The position numbers and the translations under genes were made by a program. From NCBI GenBank assembly GCA_028282905.1, contig JANQGW010000070.1:1-64000 (forward strand): a DNA stretch of 64,000 nucleotides, written 5' to 3'. The notes under the pieces are model-generated. The model saw only the letters and a program-made list of their open reading frames with translations. It made no database searches and was not told the DNA's origin. This DNA comes from Sedimentisphaerales bacterium (GTDB lineage Bacteria; Planctomycetota; Phycisphaerae; Sedimentisphaerales; Anaerohalosphaeraceae). Shown here piece after piece: positions 534-39,968 of the stretch (positions are counted from its first letter, which is position 1; every line of letters starts with the position of its first letter).

Positions 534-1886
534 TTATGCATTCATTGGTTTTTCGATTGCTTTGATCTGCTGCAGCAGTGTTTGGTGCAGTTTCTGCTGA
601 AGCTGTTTGTGTTCCGGCTTATCAATAAGATTGTTTGTTTGATACGGATCGACAAGATTGTCATATAAAACATAGCCGGTTTCTTTATTGGCGTGCCATG
701 CGTAGGTGTATTGTCTTGTGCGAATGCCGCGCCAGGCGGTTTCTTTATCGGGGGCGCCGATTGTCAGATAGACAATTTCATTCTCCTTGCCTGTTGTTTT
801 TGTGAATACATGTGAAAGATCGCTGCCGTCCAGGTCTTTGGGTTTATCGAGCTTACTCAGGCCGCACAGGGTTGGGTAAATATCGATGGTCGAAAACAGC
901 GAGGCGGTTTGGCGTCCGGCCGGAATCCCCTTGGCCCAGCGGGCAATAAACGGCACACCAATGGATTCTTTCCACGGTTTGGATTTATAGCTCTCGCCTT
1001 GTGAACGGTGCATGTCGCCGTGGTCGGACGTAAAGCAAATGAGCGTGTCGTCTGCAATTCCAAGGCTGTTCAGTGTTTTGAGCAGTTTGCCGATACAGTC
1101 ATCGAGGCACATGTAGTGGGCATAGTAACCGTGCAGGGCTTTTCGGTGTCTTTCGTTCATGTTCTTGACATTGGGTCGCAGCGAGAACGACTTGGGATCA
1201 ACTTTGTCCATATATTCCTTGGGGGCGGTATAAGGCATGTGCGGCCCGCCGTATGAAACCATCAAAAACCAGGGAGCGTCGGTTTTGGACTTCGTGCCGA
1301 TAAAGTCAATGGCCAGGTCCGTCTGATGCACCGGCTCGAAAATACCTTCCGGCACTTTTTTCTTTTCTTCCGAGTCGGTAAAGTACACACCTCTGTTGAA
1401 AGCGTGTCCCCGATTGAAGCCGGCCCAGTATTTCCAACCCTGTCGATAGCGGACATGGCCGGGCTTTGATGGGCCGTCGAGATGCCATTTTCCGATATAG
1501 CCGGTTTCGTAGCCAGCTTTACCGAAATGTTCAGCGATGCAATGTTCATCCGGTGCCATTAAGTCATTATTATGCCAGACATTGGTTTGCGAGGCATATT
1601 TACCTGTCATCAAAATGGCTCGATGCGGCGTGCAGACCGGAGAGTTGGAATAAGCGTGAGTCAGATGGATACCGTCTTTAGCAAGTGAGTCAATATGCGG
1701 CGTTTTAAGATTGGTATCGCCCGCACAGCTCAGTACTTGCGCCCGCCATTGGTCGGTGAGAAGATACAAAATATTCGGGCCTTTTTTGTTTTTTGGTTTA
1801 TTCGCCGCGGCCAGCAACGGATTGCCTGCCGCTAAAAGTGCGGCCGCTCCGGTTATCTTTAAAAAGGCTCGTCTGTTTAAACGCAT
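534..1886 (-). CDS. Secreted sulfatase (type I, Tat signal)
   Basis: A 450-aa alkaline-phosphatase-superfamily sulfatase that would hydrolyse sulfate esters, probably on algal or host glycans. The N-terminus carries a twin-arginine signal (RRAFLK at residues 5-10 followed by an Ala/Leu-rich stretch), so export in folded form is expected. The metal-binding start of the fold (LLTDQWR, about residues 42-48) and the sulfatase signature C-T-P-H-R with Cys85 are visible. Cys85 would be converted to formylglycine; because the residue is Cys, either FGE or the anaerobic radical-SAM anSME could do it, and neither gene is in the window. An 'FTSDHGDMHRSQG' motif supplies further metal ligands. A GGAG ribosome site lies 7 bases before the ATG. 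It follows the PhoD-like gene by 22 bases and is probably co-transcribed with it. Confidence 0.93.
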   Translation of the reverse strand: MRLNRRAFLKITGAAALLAAGNPLLAAANKPKNKKGPNILYLLTDQWRAQVLSCAGDTNLKTPHIDSLAKDGIHLTHAYSNSPVCTPHRAILMTGKYASQTNVWHNNDLMAPDEHCIAEHFGKAGYETGYIGKWHLDGPSKPGHVRYRQGWKYWAGFNRGHAFNRGVYFTDSEEKKKVPEGIFEPVHQTDLAIDFIGTKSKTDAPWFLMVSYGGPHMPYTAPKEYMDKVDPKSFSLRPNVKNMNERHRKALHGYYAHYMCLDDCIGKLLKTLNSLGIADDTLICFTSDHGDMHRSQGESYKSKPWKESIGVPFIARWAKGIPAGRQTASLFSTIDIYPTLCGLSKLDKPKDLDGSDLSHVFTKTTGKENEIVYLTIGAPDKETAWRGIRTRQYTYAWHANKETGYVLYDNLVDPYQTNNLIDKPEHKQLQQKLHQTLLQQIKAIEKPMNA

Positions 1887-1908
1887 AATAAACTCCGGTG
1901 ATTTTGTT

Positions 1909-2148
1909 TTAGTTCTCTAATTCAATCTTCAGAACGCTGTTGTTTTCTGCTGCCGCTTTTAGATTTTTAATTGTTTTCATGTTGTTCGTTCCCGGTTCAC
2001 CAATCTTAACGGTATAGGTACCCTCGGCAAATACCTTGGGTCGGTAGGAGCGGCCTTTAATCCGGACGGTATAAACGATTTTCTGGTTCTTTTCGTCGAT
2101 GACCTGGACGACCGGGTCGGACATGCCTTTTGTGACCAGCTCCGGCAG
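1909..2148 (-). pseudogene. C-terminal 79 codons of the PhoD-like gene, beyond an in-frame TGA
   Basis: This segment lies in exactly the same frame as the PhoD-like gene and directly follows its TGA stop at 2149-2151. It runs without another stop to the TAA at 1909. The translation continues plausibly from the upstream protein (LPELVTKGMSDPVVQV, then a beta-rich tail with 'FAEGTYTVKIGEPG'), as in intact relatives where this tail follows 'GRKA.AW'. A Trp codon TGG changed to TGA would explain the break. A separate start at the ATG 2122-2124 is possible but has no convincing ribosome site. It is best read as the severed or read-through end of the upstream gene. Confidence 0.7.
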
Positions 2149-4902
2149 TCAGGCGGCTGCTTTGCGCCCATAGTTGTCATACATATCGATGGTTTTGGGC
2201 CAGCCTAAATACTGCCCGCCGGTGGACGGGTCTTTGGGGTTGGCGTAGCGTGGCCAGATTTCCATCGTGATCGTTCGGTCCTTCTTGTCAAACCGGGCGA
2301 TGCCGTATCCGGGCATTCTATCGTGCAGGATGGACGGTTCTCTGCCGGTATCGGCGCCGGGGTTGGCTGCTGCCCAGACGGTTACCTTATTGCCGTAACC
2401 GTCCAGATATTGTCCGGTGTAGTTCGGCATTCCTTCCTGATGATTTTTGCCTTTGTAAGAGGGCGTCCAATGCCTCGGGTAGAAATTGGCGATGGACGGC
2501 ACACACAAACTCCAGCCGGCGTCGTCATGGGCATCGATGCCGTGATGGACGGTCGTGGCCAGATGCTGGTCGCCGGCCAGCATAAACGCATATCCCTTGC
2601 GAAGTTCACGCAGTGCGCGGTTGCGTCCCGCGACGGGCCAGCCGTTGGTATCTTTGTCAACGGACGGTGTTCCCGGATTGCCGCGGCCTCTGCTGGCCCA
2701 GCCGGTATGCATCGCCGCGAAGATGGTTTGGCTCAAGGCGGTTTTAAACCGCACGCCATCGCTCCAGTCGGCACACCAGTCCGCCAAAAAGGCCAACTGT
2801 CGCTCGCCCAGCAGCACATGTTTAGACTCATCATCAGACTCGGCTTCTTCGGATTTTTGACCAATCTTAAACTTACGGTCCTCCAGTATCGCGAAGTCAA
2901 CCTGTCCGCACTTCATCGACGTGTAGTAAACACCGATGCCTTGCTCGATCGGCGTTGGGTCGTACGGATCGGGCAGATTTGAGGTTTGCGTCCGTTCCAC
3001 CATCTTCACGAAATCAGCCGGTTGGACATACCCTCCGTCATCCTGGCGTTTGGCTTTACGGCCGCCCTGGCCCCAGAGGTTGCCCTGGTACACATCATGG
3101 TCGTCCGGCACACAGATGCAGGGAATATCTTTGGCCAGATCACGAAACGCCCAGCACCACAAATACCACTTGTACAGATAATCCAGCTCAAGGTTTTTCC
3201 GGTCGGCAAAGGTCGGACTGGCACCTTCATAGACCTGGTCGCCGCTGAAGAAAAGCACGTCCGGCTGGTGTGCTGCCACATGTTTGACAATGTCATTATG
3301 CGGGAACCACAATGTATCATTGTTCCACTTGTAACCGGCTTTGCCGAATCCCCGCTTATTGTTATGATTGCCGGTAAAACCTGCGATAACGATCTGCCGC
3401 TTGTCAACAGGGTCTTTGGCAATGGTGCCGCCCCAGTAATACCGGCGACTTTTATCCGCTGACACTTTAAGGTCATAGGCAACACGGTACTGGCAATCTT
3501 TTGTGTCGTCCCAGTTTTCCACCTTAAACGTCGCGGTGTATCCCGGTACGATAATCTCCGCTTTGGCGATATCTTTCCATCCGAACATCTGCTTGACCTG
3601 CAGGATAGCCTTTTTCGCATCCGTCTGGCTAATCGGCATTAACTGCGCCGTTAGTTTTAAGATTTTATCTGACAAGGTGTATTGGGTGGACAAAACTGGT
3701 CCGGCTAACCGATCTGGGAAGGCTTTTATTTTCGAGCCGCTAATGCTCAGCTCATTAAACCAGAAACCTGTTCCTTTTTTACTGCCATAGTTTGAGACTA
3801 AGGCGATATTGCCGATGATGGCTTCGGCATCGATACCGTTTTTTTCAACTTCAGCAATTTTTTGGCCGGTTGTTGGATTATGTGCGCTGAGCAGCAGATG
3901 ATAGCTATTTTGTTGCGATGTGCCCTTGACCTCAAGTACCAGTTCAGAGACGTCTAACTGGCTTTCATTGCTCTGCATACTTTCAAGTCCCTGTTCCGCG
4001 GCATTCGCATCGAGCACTGCCAGTTCTGCGACGACGCCGGCGGGTCTGTCCAGATGGCCCGAGATTGCGACCAACCGAATATAACGGGCTTTGACAGGGG
4101 CAAACTTGATAATTTCCGGCTTGTCGCTATCAGCCAAATTGCCCTTGGCCACGGCATTGCCCCACTGTGATTTATCAGTGGAGGCATAAAATTTATAGCC
4201 TTTGATGCGTCCAACCGAACTTTCCTTCCGGGGCCAATAGACAAAACCGTTAATCGACTGCGTGCGGCCCATATCAATCTGTAATTCGTGGGGGTACGGG
4301 ACTTTCTTGTCTTTCCATTGCGTATGCCAGATGGTTGCCGGGTCGCCGTCAAAGACATTCTCCGCTTTTGTGGCGCCTTCAACGCTGTCAACATGGATAA
4401 CCTTCCAGGCATCGGTCGGCACAGTGCCTTTGATGCCGATGTCTTTGTGCCATCCGTTTTCTTTGGAATTATCCGCAATCACAAGCCGCCCGTCACCGCT
4501 GACGCCGGCAAAGAAGCCGCCGTCAGCGCCGGGGCCTTCCTGGACCAGTGCCGCGGCCCGATAGTCCAGATCGCTGCTGCCGGCGCCGATAAGAAAGCCC
4601 GCCGCACTTTGCGCCGAAGTGTCATTGACATCGATAGCACCCAGTTTAACACGCAGGGATATCTCGCCTTTACCGGCACCAATCCGACGGGTCAGCAGGT
4701 GGACCGTCCGTCCGCTCAGCGTATGCTCAATACACTCAAGGCGGCCATTGCTGATTTGCCAGTCCTGCAGACGGTTGGCCCAGAATTCCGGCCCAACCCA
4801 CGTTCGGTCCGGCACGTCCGACCAGTCAGTGGAGTAATTCGCGGATAAACAAGGGCAGGTGAAGCATGCCAACACTAAAAACGAGTAAACGATTGATTTC
4901 AT
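2149..4902 (-). CDS. Secreted PhoD-like phosphoesterase with discoidin domain, stopped early by in-frame TGA
   Basis: A 917-aa exported protein with a signal peptide at residues 1-20 and a GGAGG ribosome site 4 bases upstream. An N-terminal beta-sandwich (about 25-165) is followed by an F5/8 type C (discoidin) carbohydrate-binding domain (about 175-300, containing 'NVFDGDPATIWHTQW' and 'ARYIRLVAISG'). A further beta domain precedes a PhoD/calcineurin-like metallophosphatase domain (about 500-900) with the metal ligand motifs 'FSGDQVYEG', 'VPDDHDVYQGN' and 'AGDQHLATTVHHG'. It probably cleaves phosphoesters outside the cytoplasm. The frame ends at a TGA after 'GRKAAA', yet homologous sequence continues in frame for 79 more codons, so a nonsense mutation, sequencing error or recoding event is likely. 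It probably forms an operon with the sulfatase. Confidence 0.88.
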   Translation of the reverse strand: MKSIVYSFLVLACFTCPCLSANYSTDWSDVPDRTWVGPEFWANRLQDWQISNGRLECIEHTLSGRTVHLLTRRIGAGKGEISLRVKLGAIDVNDTSAQSAAGFLIGAGSSDLDYRAAALVQEGPGADGGFFAGVSGDGRLVIADNSKENGWHKDIGIKGTVPTDAWKVIHVDSVEGATKAENVFDGDPATIWHTQWKDKKVPYPHELQIDMGRTQSINGFVYWPRKESSVGRIKGYKFYASTDKSQWGNAVAKGNLADSDKPEIIKFAPVKARYIRLVAISGHLDRPAGVVAELAVLDANAAEQGLESMQSNESQLDVSELVLEVKGTSQQNSYHLLLSAHNPTTGQKIAEVEKNGIDAEAIIGNIALVSNYGSKKGTGFWFNELSISGSKIKAFPDRLAGPVLSTQYTLSDKILKLTAQLMPISQTDAKKAILQVKQMFGWKDIAKAEIIVPGYTATFKVENWDDTKDCQYRVAYDLKVSADKSRRYYWGGTIAKDPVDKRQIVIAGFTGNHNNKRGFGKAGYKWNNDTLWFPHNDIVKHVAAHQPDVLFFSGDQVYEGASPTFADRKNLELDYLYKWYLWCWAFRDLAKDIPCICVPDDHDVYQGNLWGQGGRKAKRQDDGGYVQPADFVKMVERTQTSNLPDPYDPTPIEQGIGVYYTSMKCGQVDFAILEDRKFKIGQKSEEAESDDESKHVLLGERQLAFLADWCADWSDGVRFKTALSQTIFAAMHTGWASRGRGNPGTPSVDKDTNGWPVAGRNRALRELRKGYAFMLAGDQHLATTVHHGIDAHDDAGWSLCVPSIANFYPRHWTPSYKGKNHQEGMPNYTGQYLDGYGNKVTVWAAANPGADTGREPSILHDRMPGYGIARFDKKDRTITMEIWPRYANPKDPSTGGQYLGWPKTIDMYDNYGRKAAA

Positions 4903-5917
4903 AAGACCTCCGGTTTGTCTTTACTTTTCAGATGTACTATTCAGATTCTAAAATTTTTGCCTTCTCTTGCTTACATTTGCACGTTGCACACGATAATTAG
5001 CATAGTCTCTTGATATAACACCAATATCTCTATTATATCCACCATAAATTAGCTTGGACTCAATGAGCATATTCCCCAAAGCAGCAGATAAAGGCCTTTT
5101 GATCAATGATTTACCCCCGTATTGGGTATTATTTCCTGTAAGGGATTTATTTACTTAGTATTGTCCGTAGAAAAGAGGTTTTTGCAGAATTTTTCCACAT
5201 TTTGCTAAACTAATTTACGTGAAACAGATTGGAAATATTCTATATTTGGTTTTGATAAAGCGATTTGATTTAATTTTATAAAATCACCATTATTTTGTAA
5301 AAACAGGGAGAAATTCTGCAAATTAACACATGACTATGTTGTTAAATTATGTAGTGGTCTGTTTAAAAATATAATATTAACCAGAAATTGTATGCTTATG
5401 GGACGTTGGCGGATTTCTCGGTGTTTTTTTGCGTGAATTTTAAGTGTTTTCCATCTGCAAGCCCGGAAAATAATCATTGTTTTGCGAAAAAATGGGGAGG
5501 TGGCCCATTCGGGTCGGTTGACGGGGGACATCGGACTGTATGGCTTTCTTTGAACCTCTAATTTAGATGGTTTTACGCTATTTCGCGGAACAATACCTGC
5601 ATAATTGCTTATTGTGAATCTTTCAGCGGATTTTACTGAACCGGGGATGAATCCCAATGGAATAGAGAATAAGTGCCTTATGACTACGATATGGCAACCT
5701 TGATCTTATTGCCATAGTATTAATACGACTGTGATTTAATAAAAAATGTCAAATTTATATGATTGTCGGGATAGAATAATAGGGGGTACTGTCCACCGGC
5801 TAAAAAATGAAAAGACTCATTGTGTTTCCGAAGTGGTTTCAATAAAATAAGAGAACGTATAGTGTGAATATGACAGAGTTACCTTCCAATGATAGCACGC
5901 ATTATTCAGGGCGACGT
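4903..5917. other. Gene-free, AT-rich region between divergent operons
   Basis: About 1 kb separates the leftward PhoD/sulfatase genes from the rightward Mo/W operon. It is AT-rich and should contain both promoters. No frame in it looks protein-like; a 107-codon leftward frame at 5334-5657 has atypical composition and no ribosome site. The notable structure is a pair of 16-nt inverted repeats at 5181-5196 and 5307-5322, described separately. Confidence 0.6.
5181..5322. repeat. MITE-like element with 16-nt terminal inverted repeats
   Basis: The left arm (5181-5196, beginning TTTGCAGAATTT) and the right arm (5307-5322, ending AAATTCTGCAAA) are reverse complements over 16 positions with one T/G mismatch, 110 bases apart. 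The interior is AT-rich and non-coding. No transposase is nearby and no clear target duplication is visible, so a miniature inverted-repeat element is only one reading. A paired regulatory site is another. Confidence 0.45.
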
Positions 5918-15253: not shown

Positions 15254-18037
15254 GTGACAAAAGTTAAATTGATTCTCTCGATATTATTGGTGTTTTCTGT
15301 TGGTGTCTATGCCGAGGTGGCGACTGAAATCAAGGTTGAAGAACACGTGGAAAACAAGGATGTGGATCAAACTCTGCAGACGAAACTTGAGGACGCACGC
15401 CGTCAGCTGCGGACTGAGTTGATGAATGATCCGGCATTGTTTGAAGCCGGTCAAACCAGGGTCTATCGCGGCAAGCATTTAGACGCCATCGAGTTTCCCG
15501 TAGGGGGTATCGGCAGTGGCTGTCTCTTGATGGATGGAACCGCTCGGCGTCGAGCCTGGCAGATATTTCACAATTTTACTTACAATGTTATCCCTGATTC
15601 ATTCTTTGCGATTCGCATGAAGCAGGCCGACGGCAAACCGCAGGTTCGCACTTTGCAGACTGTTTCCGAAGGGCCTTTCGAAAAGATGACCGCGTTGAGT
15701 ATGCGAGGTGAATATCCGTTTGCCTGGTATGATTTTGAAGATGCTAAGTTGCCCGCAGAGGTGTCACTGGAAACATATAATCCGTTTATCCCGTTGGATG
15801 CAAAAAACTCGGCGATTCCCTGTGCCGTGTACAACATAACGGTCAAGAATGTTTCAGGTAAACCGCTCGGCGTCATTCTGCTGGGCACGCAGCAGAATGC
15901 CGTGGGCTATGTCCCTCCCAAGGCCGAATACAGAGATGTAAGCTTTGACGAGGTCTTTGACAACGGCAATCAATACAGGGATCCGATTGTCATAAAAGCA
16001 AGAAAGTTTGGAACCTATGGCCAAAACTGCAATCAGGTTCGGACTGAAGATGGGTTCTGCTCCATCGACATGACCATTCAGCAATCAGCCGATTCGAGAG
16101 CATACGGAAGCATGTCGTTGAGTGTTTTAAATGCTGATTCCACAACAGCAATTGCCTCGTGGGACGACATCAATGTGCTGCACACGGATTTTTGTGAAGA
16201 TGGAAAACTATCATCCGATATCGCCAAAGCCGGTCCGTCGCCGGACGGTGAAACGCTGAACGGAGCCATTGCCGCTGACATACAACTGGCTCCCGGCCAA
16301 AGCCGAACTGTCTCTTTTCTGCTGACGTGGCATTTCCCCAATGATCTTTTGGGCGGCTTTATTAACCCGCCGAAATGGAACGCGAGAGCCTGGGGTGGCG
16401 GCCAGTGGGGCGGCAAAGGTAATATGTATGGAAACTGGTGGGAAAATGCCTCCGAGGTGGCCGATTATGTCTCTGTAAATTTTGAGAAGCTCGAAACGGA
16501 GACCCGGCAATTCCATCAGACATTTTATCAAACGAATTTGCCGCACTGGCTGCTGGATCGCATCAGCGGTCAGATGGCCATCTTAAAATCAATGACCTGC
16601 TTTTGGACAAAGGATAACTATTTCGGCGGCTGGGAAGGAACCGGATCGGTGGATGGATCCTGCGCGGGCAACTGCTCACATGTCTGGCATTATGCACAGG
16701 CCCACAGCCGACTGTTTCCGGAACTGGCTCGCCTGATGCGTCAGCAGGAATTAGGCGCCATGAAACCGGATGGAATGATTCCATTTCGTCAGATTGATAA
16801 CGGTCACCCGGCCCTGGACGCGCAATGCGGCATTATTCTGGGGGCTTATCGGGAACACCTGGTCTCAGAAGACGGGGACTGGCTGAAGCAGTATTATCCG
16901 GCGATCAAAAAAGCCATGGAATACGCCATTGGTCACTGGGACAGCGACGAAGACGGCTGGCTGACAGGCTCTCAGCACACCACACTGGACTGTGCCCTGA
17001 GCGGAAACTCCTCATGGCTGGGTTCGATGTACGCGGCGGCACTGGCGGCAAGTGAAAAAATGGCACTCCTGCAGGATGACACTCCACATGCCAAACGCTG
17101 CAGAAAGATACTGGATGGGGCAACGAACTTGCACAATGAAAAGCTTTGGAACGGAAAATACTTTTTCCAGATTCCAGGAAAGCAACCTCTGTCCGATTAC
17201 AACAACGGCTGTGCGATTGACCAGATGCTGGGCCAGTGGTGGGCCTGGCAGGTTGGTTTGGGCGATCTCTATCCGCGCCCGCGGATTAAGTCTGCCATGG
17301 CATCGGTCTTCAACAATAACTTCCGCGCCAATTTTGTAGGAATCCAGCAAAAGCCGCGAGAGTTTGTCAAATCCGATGAAGCGGCGATGCAGATTATCAC
17401 TTGGCCGGGCAAGGACCGACCAGCTCGTCATACAGCCTATGCGGATGAAGTGATGTCCGGTTTTGAGTATGCCGCCGCAGCAAACATGCTCGAAACAGGA
17501 TTAGACACGCAGGCCCTGACCGCGCTGAAAGCCATTTCCGATCGCTATGACGGGCGACTTCGTACCGGCTACAAGCCCGGCTGGGGAAATCTGGGCTACA
17601 GCGGTAATCCCTTTGGTGATGATGAGTGCGGCAAGTTTTACAGCCGTTCTCTCAGCATCTATTCGGTTCTGCTGACAAGTCAGGGCTATCACTACGTTGG
17701 CCCGCAAGATGTACTGGCCTTTAGCCCGGTCTGGAAAAAGCAGAATCACCGATCTTTCTTTACGACCGCAACGGGCTGGGGCCTGTTTACACAAAAAATT
17801 GACAGCACCGAGCAATCCAATGCACTTGATGTTAAGTGGGGAAAGGTCAAATTGAAAAAACTAACTTTGGCTGTTCCAGAGAAAAAAACAGTTGCCAAAA
17901 TAAGAGTCCGCCACAATGAAGAACACTTGCGGACTACTTTCAAGCAGGCCGCATCCGGCGCTGTTGAGATTTTGTTCAATGACACGCTAACAATTTCAAA
18001 AGATCAGAAGCTTAAGGTGGATATTTCACTGAAATAA
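15254..18037 (+). CDS. Secreted GH116 family glycosidase (GBA2/DUF608 type)
   Basis: A 927-aa exported enzyme starting with GTG and carrying a signal peptide (residues 1-20, ending 'GVYAE'). The N-terminal half is the GBA2_N-like beta domain beginning at 'FPVGGIGSGCLLMDG'. The C-terminal half is an (alpha/alpha)6 barrel of DUF608 type with 'WEGTGSVDGSCAGNCSHVWHYAQ' (W460, E461) and 'TTLDCALSGNSSWLGS' (Asp579), corresponding to regions that hold the catalytic residues of GH116. Characterised relatives are beta-glucosidases, beta-xylosidases or glucosylceramidases, and the substrate here is unknown. It stands alone between the Mo/W operon and the imino acid island. Confidence 0.88.
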   Translation: MTKVKLILSILLVFSVGVYAEVATEIKVEEHVENKDVDQTLQTKLEDARRQLRTELMNDPALFEAGQTRVYRGKHLDAIEFPVGGIGSGCLLMDGTARRRAWQIFHNFTYNVIPDSFFAIRMKQADGKPQVRTLQTVSEGPFEKMTALSMRGEYPFAWYDFEDAKLPAEVSLETYNPFIPLDAKNSAIPCAVYNITVKNVSGKPLGVILLGTQQNAVGYVPPKAEYRDVSFDEVFDNGNQYRDPIVIKARKFGTYGQNCNQVRTEDGFCSIDMTIQQSADSRAYGSMSLSVLNADSTTAIASWDDINVLHTDFCEDGKLSSDIAKAGPSPDGETLNGAIAADIQLAPGQSRTVSFLLTWHFPNDLLGGFINPPKWNARAWGGGQWGGKGNMYGNWWENASEVADYVSVNFEKLETETRQFHQTFYQTNLPHWLLDRISGQMAILKSMTCFWTKDNYFGGWEGTGSVDGSCAGNCSHVWHYAQAHSRLFPELARLMRQQELGAMKPDGMIPFRQIDNGHPALDAQCGIILGAYREHLVSEDGDWLKQYYPAIKKAMEYAIGHWDSDEDGWLTGSQHTTLDCALSGNSSWLGSMYAAALAASEKMALLQDDTPHAKRCRKILDGATNLHNEKLWNGKYFFQIPGKQPLSDYNNGCAIDQMLGQWWAWQVGLGDLYPRPRIKSAMASVFNNNFRANFVGIQQKPREFVKSDEAAMQIITWPGKDRPARHTAYADEVMSGFEYAAAANMLETGLDTQALTALKAISDRYDGRLRTGYKPGWGNLGYSGNPFGDDECGKFYSRSLSIYSVLLTSQGYHYVGPQDVLAFSPVWKKQNHRSFFTTATGWGLFTQKIDSTEQSNALDVKWGKVKLKKLTLAVPEKKTVAKIRVRHNEEHLRTTFKQAASGAVEILFNDTLTISKDQKLKVDISLK

Positions 18038-23520: not shown

Positions 23521-25884
23521 ATGAACGAACGGATTACAAAACTTCGCAATCAAAGTGTTCAGGCCCGGCCCTATATCAGCGACGAACGGGCCCAATTAGT
23601 GACCGCGTTTTACCAAAGCGGTGTGGCTATGCAGAATTCTGCGCCGGTCACACGAGCCATGGCACTGAAATATATCATGGAAAACAAGGCCATCTGTGTC
23701 AATGACGATGAATTGATTGTCGGCGAACGCGGCCCGGCCCCGAAGGCAACGCCCACCTATCCCGAGTTGTGTTGCCATACCCTGAACGATTTTGACGTGA
23801 TGAGTGCTCGCCAGCGAACGGCATTTGATGTCAGCGATGACGTCAAGCAGGTGTACGCCGATACGATTATCCCGTTCTGGCAGGGCAAAACCATGCGGGA
23901 AAAGGTCTTTGCCGCTATGAACGATAACTGGCAGCAGGCGTTCGAGGCAGGGGTGTTTACCGAATTTATGGAACAGCGTGCCCCCGGCCATGCCATTCTC
24001 GACGGAAAAATTTACACCCGCGGCCTCCTGGATTTCCAGGACGATATCCGCCAGCACCTGCGCAGCCTGGACTATCTCAACGACCCCGAGGCTTACGATA
24101 AACAGCAGCAGCTCAAGGCCATGTCGATTGCGATTGACGCGGTTCTGATTTTGGCGTCTCGTTATGCCGACAAATGCGAAGAACTGGCTAAAACCGAAGG
24201 CAACGCCGTCCGGAAGCAGGAACTGGAGCAGATGGCCGCGATTTGCCGTCATGTGCCCGCCTATGCGCCGCGTACCTTCCACGAGGCTTTGCAGGCCTAT
24301 TGGTTTGTCCATCTGGGCGTGATAACCGAACTGAATGTCTGGGATTCTTACAACCCGGGCCGGCTGGATCAGCATTTAGGTCCGTTTTACGCCGCCGAGA
24401 AAGCCGCCGGGGCAATGGATGAAGATAAGGCATGCGAACTGCTGCAATGCTTCTGGGTAAAATTCAACAATCAGCCCGCACCGCCCAAGGTCGGCATCAC
24501 CGAAGAACAGAGCGGCACCTATACCGATTTTGCCCTGATTAACGTTGGCGGCGTCGATCCCAAGACCGGCGGCGACGCGGTCAATGACGTGTCATTTCTG
24601 ATTCTGGACGTGGTCGAAGAAATGCAGTTGGTTCAGCCAAGTGCCTGCATCCAGATCAGCGCCAAAAATCCCGACCGGTTCGTCAAACGGGCCTGCAAGG
24701 TCATCAAGACCGGCCTCGGCCAGCCGTCGGTGTTCAATACCGATGTGATTATCCGCGAAATGCTGCACGACGGCAAGAACATGGAAGATGCCCGCACCGG
24801 CGGCCCCAGCGGCTGCGTGACCATCAGCGCTTTCGGTAAAGAAAGCTGCACGCTGACCGGCTACTGCAACTGGCCGAAAATCCTCGAACTGGCGATGAAC
24901 AACGGCCTTGACCCGCGTACGGGCAAACAGATTGGCCCCGAAACCGGCCCAATATCTGAACTGACCAGTTTCGATGACATAATGGAAGCCTACCGCAGAC
25001 AATTAAAATATTTCCTCGATTTAAAAGTCGAAGGCAACAACGTCATCGAGCGGCTGTATGCTAATTACATGCCCAGCCCGTTTATGTCGGTCCTCGTCGA
25101 TGACTGCATCAAACGCGGCAAGGACTATCACAACGGCGGCCCGCGCTACAATCCGACCTATATCCAGGGCGTCGGACTCGGTACCCTGACCGATGCACTG
25201 ATGGCGATGAAATATCATGTCTTTGACCGGCAGAATATTGCGATGGACGAACTGACCGCCGCACTGGCGACGGATTTTGAAAATAACGAAAAGCTCCGGC
25301 TGCTGCTGGAAAATCAAAGTCCCCGCTACGGCTGTGACGATAATTACGCAGACGATATCGCGGTTGAAGTCTTTAATATTTACTATGACCTGCTCAACGG
25401 CCGGCCCAATACCAAAGGCGGTCGCTACCGCGTCAACCTGCTGCCGACGACGGTGCATATCTATTTCGGGCAGGTCACCGGCGCACTGCCGCACGGCCGC
25501 AGGGCGGGTGTTCCGCTGTCGGACGGCATTTCGCCGACACAGGGCACCGATTCGCACGGCCCGACCGCGGTCGCCAAGTCTGCCGCGAAAATCGACCACG
25601 CCCGCACCGGCGGAACGCTGCTGAATATGAAATTCAACCCGCAGGTGCTGGAAGGCGCGGGGCTGGATAAAATGACCGGACTGATCCGCGGCTACTTCCG
25701 ACTCGACGGCCACCACGTCCAGTTCAATGTGATTGATAAGGAAACCCTGCTGGCCGCCCAGCAAAACCCCGCCGACTACAAAGACCTCATCGTCCGCGTC
25801 GCCGGCTACAGCGACTACTTCATCGACCTCGGCACCGACCTCCAAAACGAAATCATCGCCCGAACCGAAATGACAGAACTTTAG
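23521..25884 (+). CDS. Glycyl radical enzyme, HypD-like (4-hydroxyproline dehydratase family?)
   Basis: A 787-aa glycyl radical enzyme. The radical-bearing loop is 'RVAGYSDYF' with Gly762, and the thiyl Cys is Cys432 in 'GPSGCVTIS'. The flanking sequence 'AFGKES..LTGYCN.PKILELAMNNG', the 'RAPGHAILDGKIY' segment (His157) and 'ITELNVWDSYNPG' (Asp275) resemble trans-4-hydroxy-L-proline dehydratase HypD, whose known catalytic His, Asp, Cys and Glu are H160, D278, C434 and E436 in Clostridioides difficile. Here the Glu two residues after the Cys is Thr434. HypD makes 1-pyrroline-5-carboxylate, the substrate of the dehydrogenase encoded next, which supports a hydroxyproline role. The missing Glu means the true substrate may differ. 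Confidence 0.85.
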   Translation: MNERITKLRNQSVQARPYISDERAQLVTAFYQSGVAMQNSAPVTRAMALKYIMENKAICVNDDELIVGERGPAPKATPTYPELCCHTLNDFDVMSARQRTAFDVSDDVKQVYADTIIPFWQGKTMREKVFAAMNDNWQQAFEAGVFTEFMEQRAPGHAILDGKIYTRGLLDFQDDIRQHLRSLDYLNDPEAYDKQQQLKAMSIAIDAVLILASRYADKCEELAKTEGNAVRKQELEQMAAICRHVPAYAPRTFHEALQAYWFVHLGVITELNVWDSYNPGRLDQHLGPFYAAEKAAGAMDEDKACELLQCFWVKFNNQPAPPKVGITEEQSGTYTDFALINVGGVDPKTGGDAVNDVSFLILDVVEEMQLVQPSACIQISAKNPDRFVKRACKVIKTGLGQPSVFNTDVIIREMLHDGKNMEDARTGGPSGCVTISAFGKESCTLTGYCNWPKILELAMNNGLDPRTGKQIGPETGPISELTSFDDIMEAYRRQLKYFLDLKVEGNNVIERLYANYMPSPFMSVLVDDCIKRGKDYHNGGPRYNPTYIQGVGLGTLTDALMAMKYHVFDRQNIAMDELTAALATDFENNEKLRLLLENQSPRYGCDDNYADDIAVEVFNIYYDLLNGRPNTKGGRYRVNLLPTTVHIYFGQVTGALPHGRRAGVPLSDGISPTQGTDSHGPTAVAKSAAKIDHARTGGTLLNMKFNPQVLEGAGLDKMTGLIRGYFRLDGHHVQFNVIDKETLLAAQQNPADYKDLIVRVAGYSDYFIDLGTDLQNEIIARTEMTEL

Positions 25885-39569: not shown

Positions 39570-39968
39570 GTGGTGATCAACTTTGGCGTGACCGAACAAA
39601 AGCAGCGGGCATTGACCGAGCGAATGGCCGCCTGCGGCATTTCCGAACAGGATCTTCAGGAAACCTTTACCCGCAGCAGCGGTCCAGGCGGTCAGCATGT
39701 CAACAAAACTGCCACCTGCGTACACCTGACCCATCAACCGACCGGCCTGACAGTCAAAATGCAGAAGGCACGAACGCAAGGCCTCAATCGCTACTATGCC
39801 CGCAAGCGGTTATGTGAACTGTTGGAAAATCAGCAATCTCCCGGCCAAAGCGACGAAGCCAAACGCATTGCCAAAATCCGAAAACAAAAGAATCGCCGCC
39901 GCCGTCGTCGTACCTCCAAGGATTCTACACCAACGGTTATTTCAAGCAAAGCTGATTCGTCAGAGTGA
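39570..39968 (+). CDS. RF-1-domain (GGQ) peptidyl-tRNA hydrolase-like protein
   Basis: A 132-aa protein starting with GTG preceded by GAGG. 'TRSSGPGGQHVNKTAT' contains the catalytic GGQ motif of class I release factors, and the C-terminal tail is rich in Arg and Lys ('KQKNRRRRRRTS'), as in ArfB/YaeJ and related rescue proteins. It may free peptides from stalled ribosomes or from peptidyl-tRNA. Compared with ArfB the segment 'EQDLQETFTRSSGPGGQ' is closer to the RF-1-like 'prfH/YaeJ-like' families, so the exact subgroup is left open. Confidence 0.88.
   Translation: MVINFGVTEQKQRALTERMAACGISEQDLQETFTRSSGPGGQHVNKTATCVHLTHQPTGLTVKMQKARTQGLNRYYARKRLCELLENQQSPGQSDEAKRIAKIRKQKNRRRRRRTSKDSTPTVISSKADSSE

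What the first reader, a model, noticed from the sequence alone, without database searches (positions are those of the whole stretch)
2122..2160. Single in-frame TGA interrupts the PhoD-like gene
The TGA at 2149-2151 is followed in the same frame by 79 codons that look like the natural C-terminus of the protein, up to a TAA. Other genes in the window end normally at TGA, so the codon is not generally recoded. A TGG to TGA change in a Trp codon fits. I see no convincing bacterial SECIS hairpin just after the TGA.
Basis: partly seen in the sequence, partly recalled or inferred. Interest (0 to 1): 0.55.

Follow-up and report, generated by a model that had tools for sequence, protein, structure and literature searches.

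The report
Stray stop codon in phosphatase gene
A single "stop" triplet cuts a bacterial phosphatase gene just before its last domain; the relatives examined lack it and the known signs of deliberate re-reading are absent, so it looks like an ordinary recent mutation or a sequence error.

Summary
The PhoD-like gene on the minus strand (4902..2149) meets an in-frame TGA at 2149-2151, followed by 79 codons to a TAA at 1909-1911; these encode a conserved C-terminal beta domain. Of 69 homologue rows with a residue at this column, 34 have Tyr, 17 Trp (TGG), 6 Phe, 4 His and 8 others; none has Cys or a stop.

This TGA still fails the Sec tests: no Cys or TGA in homologues, no hairpin within the published bacterial SECIS limits. 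RF2 is present, tRNA-Trp is canonical, and no suppressor tRNA was found in a capped tRNA list.

Best reading: a recent nonsense mutation, or else a consensus error, that leaves the catalytic domain and removes a domain which three relatives also lack. Low interest. A control turned up something better: an apparently uncatalogued selenoprotein family on another contig (Noticed in passing).

The parts
2152..4902 (-). PhoD-like metallophosphatase ORF upstream of the in-frame TGA (917 codons), with F5/8 type C domain and PhoD domain
   Evidence: ORF list; Pfam F5_F8_type_C residues 175-287 and PhoD residues 537-806
2149..2151 (-). in-frame TGA, codon 918
   Evidence: sequence, translation; homologues with a residue here carry sense codons
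1912..2148 (-). 79 codons beyond the TGA: conserved C-terminal all-beta domain
   Evidence: homologue alignment; six strands in the model, pLDDT about 90-98; codon-usage survey
1909..1911 (-). TAA, end of the full-length frame
534..1886 (-). sulfatase gene directly downstream on the same strand, starting 22 bases after the TAA
   Evidence: ORF list; Pfam Sulfatase E 2.5e-52

Best explanation
A recent single-base nonsense change in an otherwise normal gene. Shown: the TGA, the open conserved frame behind it, its absence from the 69 homologue rows that have a residue there, and no recoding signal found at it. Inferred: the earlier codon was Trp (TGG). Inferred: ribosomes stop here through RF2 and release a 917-residue protein that keeps the metallophosphatase domain but lacks the C-terminal beta domain, with at most ordinary leaky read-through. 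The cell may tolerate this because two paralogues without an internal stop sit elsewhere in the genome and because some relatives have no such domain.
For: Column 918 in 73 homologue rows: Tyr 34, Trp 17 (TGG), Phe 6, His 4, eight single others, 4 rows without the tail; no stop and no Cys. The tail still shows constraint: pN/pS 0.51 (bootstrap 0.34-0.75) against the nearest homologue, and its tail-to-body identity ratio is 43rd of 67 from the lowest, so it has not visibly decayed. One stop only in the 997-codon frame. RF2 gene at 501.9 bits. No suppressor tRNA among the 52 tRNA matches listed. tRNA-Trp is CCA with a 5-bp anticodon stem. Two paralogues in the same genome, 58% and 53% identical over their best stretches, without stops inside. 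In the model the beta domain begins at about the TGA, and most invariant Asp, His and Asn residues of the alignment lie before it.
Against: No reads, no second genome of this species and no expression data were available, so a consensus error cannot be excluded. The tail has a higher pN/pS than the catalytic part (0.51 against 0.16), which could mean relaxed selection; but the tail is less conserved than the body in all 67 sequences ranked, so this cannot date the change. An open constrained frame is also what functional read-through would give.
Confidence: 0.68

Rival explanations
1. Sequence artefact: a wrong consensus base, or a minority strain's base, in a draft assembly; the real gene is intact.
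For: Draft of 243 contigs, 93.45% complete, 3.26% contamination by the tool's figures, probably from a metagenome (inference). The tail frame is otherwise open and constrained.
Against: Substitution errors in consensus sequence are rare (general knowledge). Of the 46 other segments in the survey I looked at 14, and saw no other unexplained interruption, though 8 of those 14 were judged by eye only.
Confidence: 0.2
2. Functional read-through: near-cognate tRNA-Trp reads this UGA part of the time, giving a short and a long form of the enzyme.
For: TGA is the leakiest stop in E. coli and Trp the residue mostly inserted there (PMC11126739, passages read). Constrained frames behind in-frame stops are reported as widespread in bacteria (PMC7918605, abstract and first part of the Results read). 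The stop lies at a domain border, so both forms could fold.
Against: None of the 69 homologue rows with a residue here has a stop, so nothing shows that the stop is kept by selection. The same paper finds that such stops tend to persist only briefly. tRNA-Trp has a 5-bp anticodon stem, unlike the 4-bp variant linked to UGA reading (PMC13092985, abstract read).
Confidence: 0.07
3. Loss of the last domain: the short form is the new natural end of this protein.
For: Three distinct homologous loci lack the domain: L071 (same locus as L012) ends 4 bases before the next ORF, and L022 and L024 end 18 residues after the last aligned residue, 905.
Against: In the window the tail is still present, in frame and constrained, which is expected only if the loss is very young; 68 distinct loci keep it.
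Confidence: 0.04
4. Selenocysteine codon.
For: The genome has tRNA-Sec (70.9 bits, cut-off 47), SelB and SelD.
Against: No Cys and no TGA in 69 homologue rows. No hairpin within the published bacterial SECIS limits. No match of the region behind the TGA to a SECIS model built from a Sec-like gene of this order at E up to 10.
Confidence: 0.01

Closest known systems
Nonsense mutations / in-frame stops in otherwise constrained bacterial genes (PMC7918605)
   Same: A single in-frame stop with an open, constrained frame behind it.
   Different: No second strain is available here to see whether the stop is shared.
PhoD-like metallophosphatases (Pfam PF09423)
   Same: Pfam match E 8.7e-15 over residues 537-806; among solved structures the model of residues 410-997 is most like wheat purple acid phytase 6git.
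   Different: Carries an F5/8 type C domain in front and a C-terminal beta domain; the latter is cut off here.
Bacterial selenoproteins
   Same: In-frame TGA in a genome that has Sec machinery.
   Different: No Cys or TGA in the homologue rows and no SECIS hairpin found.
UGA read as Trp (code 4; 4-bp anticodon-stem tRNA-Trp)
   Same: Trp is the likely original residue.
   Different: tRNA-Trp is CCA with a 5-bp stem, RF2 is present, TGA serves as an ordinary stop.

Membership tests
Selenoprotein gene | Sec insertion machinery in the genome | tested here: met
   tRNA-Sec, SelB and SelD above their cut-offs, all on contig C49; SelA not searched
Selenoprotein gene | TGA or Cys at the same position in homologues | tested here: not met
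   0 of 69 rows with a residue there
Selenoprotein gene | bacterial SECIS hairpin downstream (loop 3-9 nt with G, stem 4-16 bp, 16-37 nt from UGA, energy at most -7.5; limits from PMC13188914, section read) | tested here: not met
   No hairpin qualifies in my search, which allows only unbroken stems; background 17 of 1500 sampled TGA triplets of the genome pass; 17 of 22 TGA-bearing members of a Sec-like family pass
UGA reassigned to Trp | tRNA-Trp with UCA anticodon or 4-bp anticodon stem | tested here: not met
UGA reassigned to Trp | loss of RF2 and of TGA as a stop | tested here: not met
   prfB match 501.9 bits; 73 of 265 surveyed ORFs end in TGA, this one and shadow ORFs included
PhoD-like phosphatase | PhoD domain match above the curated score | tested here: met
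   55.1 bits against 27
PhoD-like phosphatase | phosphatase or phosphodiesterase activity | not testable with these tools
   no assay
Nonsense mutation (gene interruption) | homologues with a sense codon one base away | tested here: met
   17 of 69 rows TGG
Nonsense mutation (gene interruption) | base confirmed in reads | not testable with these tools
   no reads held

The most novel reading that the evidence does not exclude
The UGA is a kept, leaky stop at a domain border: tRNA-Trp reads it part of the time, so the cell makes a short enzyme and a small amount of a long one with the C-terminal beta domain, and the stop also sets how strongly the downstream sulfatase is translated.
Probability: 0.05. 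Interest if true: 0.4.

Novelty: already known. Interest (0 to 1): 0.12.

Why it matters
By itself, little: one interrupted gene in a draft genome, best annotated as a gene with an internal stop. Its use is as a contrast. In a genome that has selenocysteine machinery, it shows what a non-Sec in-frame UGA looks like beside a Sec-like one on another contig.

Tried and rejected
Rejected: selenocysteine; genome-wide UGA recoding and suppressor tRNAs (capped list); a frameshift or several lesions (one stop only); natural end of the family (69 of 73 rows run on); an independent small gene starting at the ATG at 2124 (it lies inside the conserved tail; I saw no clear ribosome-binding site, by eye only).

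Led nowhere: an Rfam search of 1000-5200 gave no match. A profile search of the phosphatase against sequences of solved structures gave nothing at E 0.001. The Foldseek list has purple acid phytases and SMPDL3A on top and then weak, mostly unrelated folds. Dating the stop by pN/pS failed because synonymous sites are saturated.

Limits of the controls. The survey ranks segments by codon usage alone. Of its 46 rows besides this one I printed 14: 5 are adjacent genes with a start within 7 codons, 1 is the Sec-like gene, 8 I judged by eye to be antisense shadow ORFs without testing them; 32 rows were not looked at singly. In one search, seven alignment rows were left out before ranking (L009, L010, L012, L071, L022, L024, L045: self, duplicates, tail-less or very divergent) and one more (L092) fell to the length filter. 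ARAGORN named 51 of the 52 tRNA matches; the last (C133:56978-57043) I folded, and its loop reads GCT, a Ser anticodon. In one search the SECIS model gave a chance-level match elsewhere in the same gene (3085-3120, minus strand, 12.3 bits, E 0.03); it does not begin with TGA, and the 71.7 bits on the C161 gene are expected, since that gene is one of the six the model was built from.

Full report
WHAT IS THERE. The window is positions 1-64000 of contig C189 (64,097 bases) of a 5.71 Mb draft genome in 243 contigs. I therefore infer that the window comes from that family of Planctomycetota. On the minus strand an ORF runs from 4902 to an in-frame TGA at 2149-2151 (917 codons), and the frame stays open for 79 more codons to a TAA at 1909-1911. 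A sulfatase gene follows on the same strand, 22 bases after the TAA.

THE TAIL IS REAL. I aligned the protein with 73 homologue rows: 2 paralogues, 22 rows from relatives and 49 from the GTDB collection. In 69 rows the protein runs through this point. The aligned residue is Tyr in 34, Trp in 17 (TGG), Phe in 6, His in 4, and Pro, Val, Lys, Asn, Ser, Leu, Ala and Gln once each. No row has a stop or a Cys there. Four rows lack the tail. Of the tail-less, L071 ends 4 bases before the next ORF, which looks like an HtpX-type peptidase (recalled, not searched), and L022 and L024 end 18 residues after the last aligned residue, 905. So the family can do without this domain, but mostly keeps it.

CONSTRAINT. 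Against the nearest homologue the tail has pN/pS 0.51 (bootstrap 0.34-0.75), the N-terminal part 0.32 and the catalytic part 0.16; synonymous sites are saturated. The ratio of tail identity to body identity for the window protein is 43rd of 67 from the lowest, i.e. unremarkable. The tail has not visibly decayed. That fits a young stop, an error, or continued translation, and cannot tell these apart.

STRUCTURE. A model of residues 410-997 with the TGA read as Trp (mean pLDDT 87, pTM 0.91) shows a metallophosphatase part followed, after the TGA position, by six strands with pLDDT about 90-98. The best solved matches by fold are wheat purple acid phytase (6git, E 1.2e-9) and human SMPDL3A (5ebb, E 2.5e-5). 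The conserved Asp, His and Asn residues that look like metal ligands lie before the TGA (the ligand role is by analogy, not tested). The 917-residue product would thus keep the catalytic domain and lose only the last domain.

IS THE UGA RECODED? The genome has tRNA-Sec (70.9 bits, cut-off 47), SelB (322 bits, cut-off 242) and SelD (372 bits, cut-off 125), all on contig C49. Sec was therefore a serious option. It fails: no Cys or TGA in the homologue rows; the 52 bases from the TGA fold no better than shuffles (z -0.62); no match there to a SECIS covariance model at E up to 10; and no hairpin meeting the limits given in PMC13188914 (SECIS section read), where 17 of 1500 sampled TGA triplets of the genome pass. 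General recoding fails too. RF2 is present. 73 of 265 surveyed ORFs end in TGA. The 52 tRNA matches listed all lie in loci that I scanned; 51 were named by ARAGORN and one I folded, and only tRNA-Sec has anticodon TCA. tRNA-Trp has a 5-bp anticodon stem rather than the 4-bp stem tied to UGA reading (PMC13092985, abstract read).

HOW IT MOST LIKELY WORKS. A Trp codon became TGA by one change (inferred). Ribosomes stop there and release a shorter, probably still folded enzyme (inferred). About 260 bases before the sulfatase start then go untranslated, which could lower sulfatase expression (speculation). UGA is the leakiest stop and is mostly misread as Trp in E. coli (PMC11126739, passages read), so a trace of full-length protein is likely, but nothing shows that this is selected. 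Two paralogues without internal stops (58% and 53% identity) may make the loss cheap.

A SIDE FINDING THAT DESERVES ITS OWN LOOK. While checking whether other genes of this genome are interrupted by TGA, I met a lipoprotein-like gene on contig C161 with TGA in the motif YL-UGA-NC. Among 77 other genomes searched, 5 have a match, and the matches in all 5 have an in-frame TGA (one, L199, also a TAG); in all 5 the TGA is at the same place. A profile search of 392 genomes of the phylum, this one included, gave matches in 16 (at most 4 candidates scored per genome). I lined up 23 loci from 21 genomes: 22 have TGA at the position and one (L213) has Cys (TGC); in all 23 the second codon on is Cys; one of the 22 (L223) is a weak match. 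Behind the TGA, 18 of the 22 TGA loci have a hairpin better than shuffles (p below 0.05), with its loop about 28 bases on and with letters that differ between subgroups; L200, L210, L211 and L212 do not. By the published SECIS limits 17 of the 22 pass, L200, L210, L211, L212 and L223 fail, and the Cys-bearing locus has none. Within the six closest sequences the stem is nearly invariant, and the covariation test there gives no support beyond shuffles (182 of 500). Neither Pfam nor NCBIfam matches the protein at E 0.1. The table of prokaryotic selenoprotein families in PMC13188914 (119 families or subfamilies; read) lists no entry that I could match by name or motif. Paper searches gave one paper on planctomycete selenoproteins (PMC4807772, passages read), whose candidate list is in supplements that I could not look up; in passages of PMC12013277 I saw nothing on Planctomycetes. 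Two papers on new selenoprotein families were not held. So novelty is likely but not proven.

VERDICT. It is an ordinary interruption of low interest; only reads can separate a real mutation from a consensus error.

Noticed in passing
L194 (G000:C161), - strand, TGA at 6523-6521; homologues L195-L200 and L209-L225: Probable uncatalogued selenoprotein family of Planctomycetota: lipoprotein-like, motif U-x-C, TGA in 22 of 23 aligned loci (own gene included) and Cys in one, SECIS-like hairpin within published limits in 17 of 22 TGA loci, no Pfam or NCBIfam match.
   Followed up: partly
L097 and L170 (G000:C49:12000-31000): Selenocysteine locus of this genome: tRNA-Sec at C49:16574-16666, selD beside it at 17038-17961 and selB at 23928-25814. 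The open frame around selD (507 aa) is longer than the family model (311).
   Followed up: partly
L071 3986-6337: PhoD-like homologue without the C-terminal beta domain; it ends 4 bases before the next ORF, as if the tail had been deleted.
   Followed up: partly
window 39633-39881 (+): Release-factor-like match in an open frame of 140 aa, probably an ArfB-type ribosome rescue factor (name recalled, not tested).
   Followed up: no
G000:C161:5108-5557 (+) and others: Several F5/8 type C domain matches in this genome and its relatives have a TAA, TAG or TGA inside, e.g. one TAA in C161; not examined.
   Followed up: no
window 2152-4902; paralogues G000:C117:86902-88899 and G000:C133:26336-28429: Three copies of the phosphatase in one genome. 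The two paralogues were matched only outside the F5/8 type C part, and have no stop inside.
   Followed up: no
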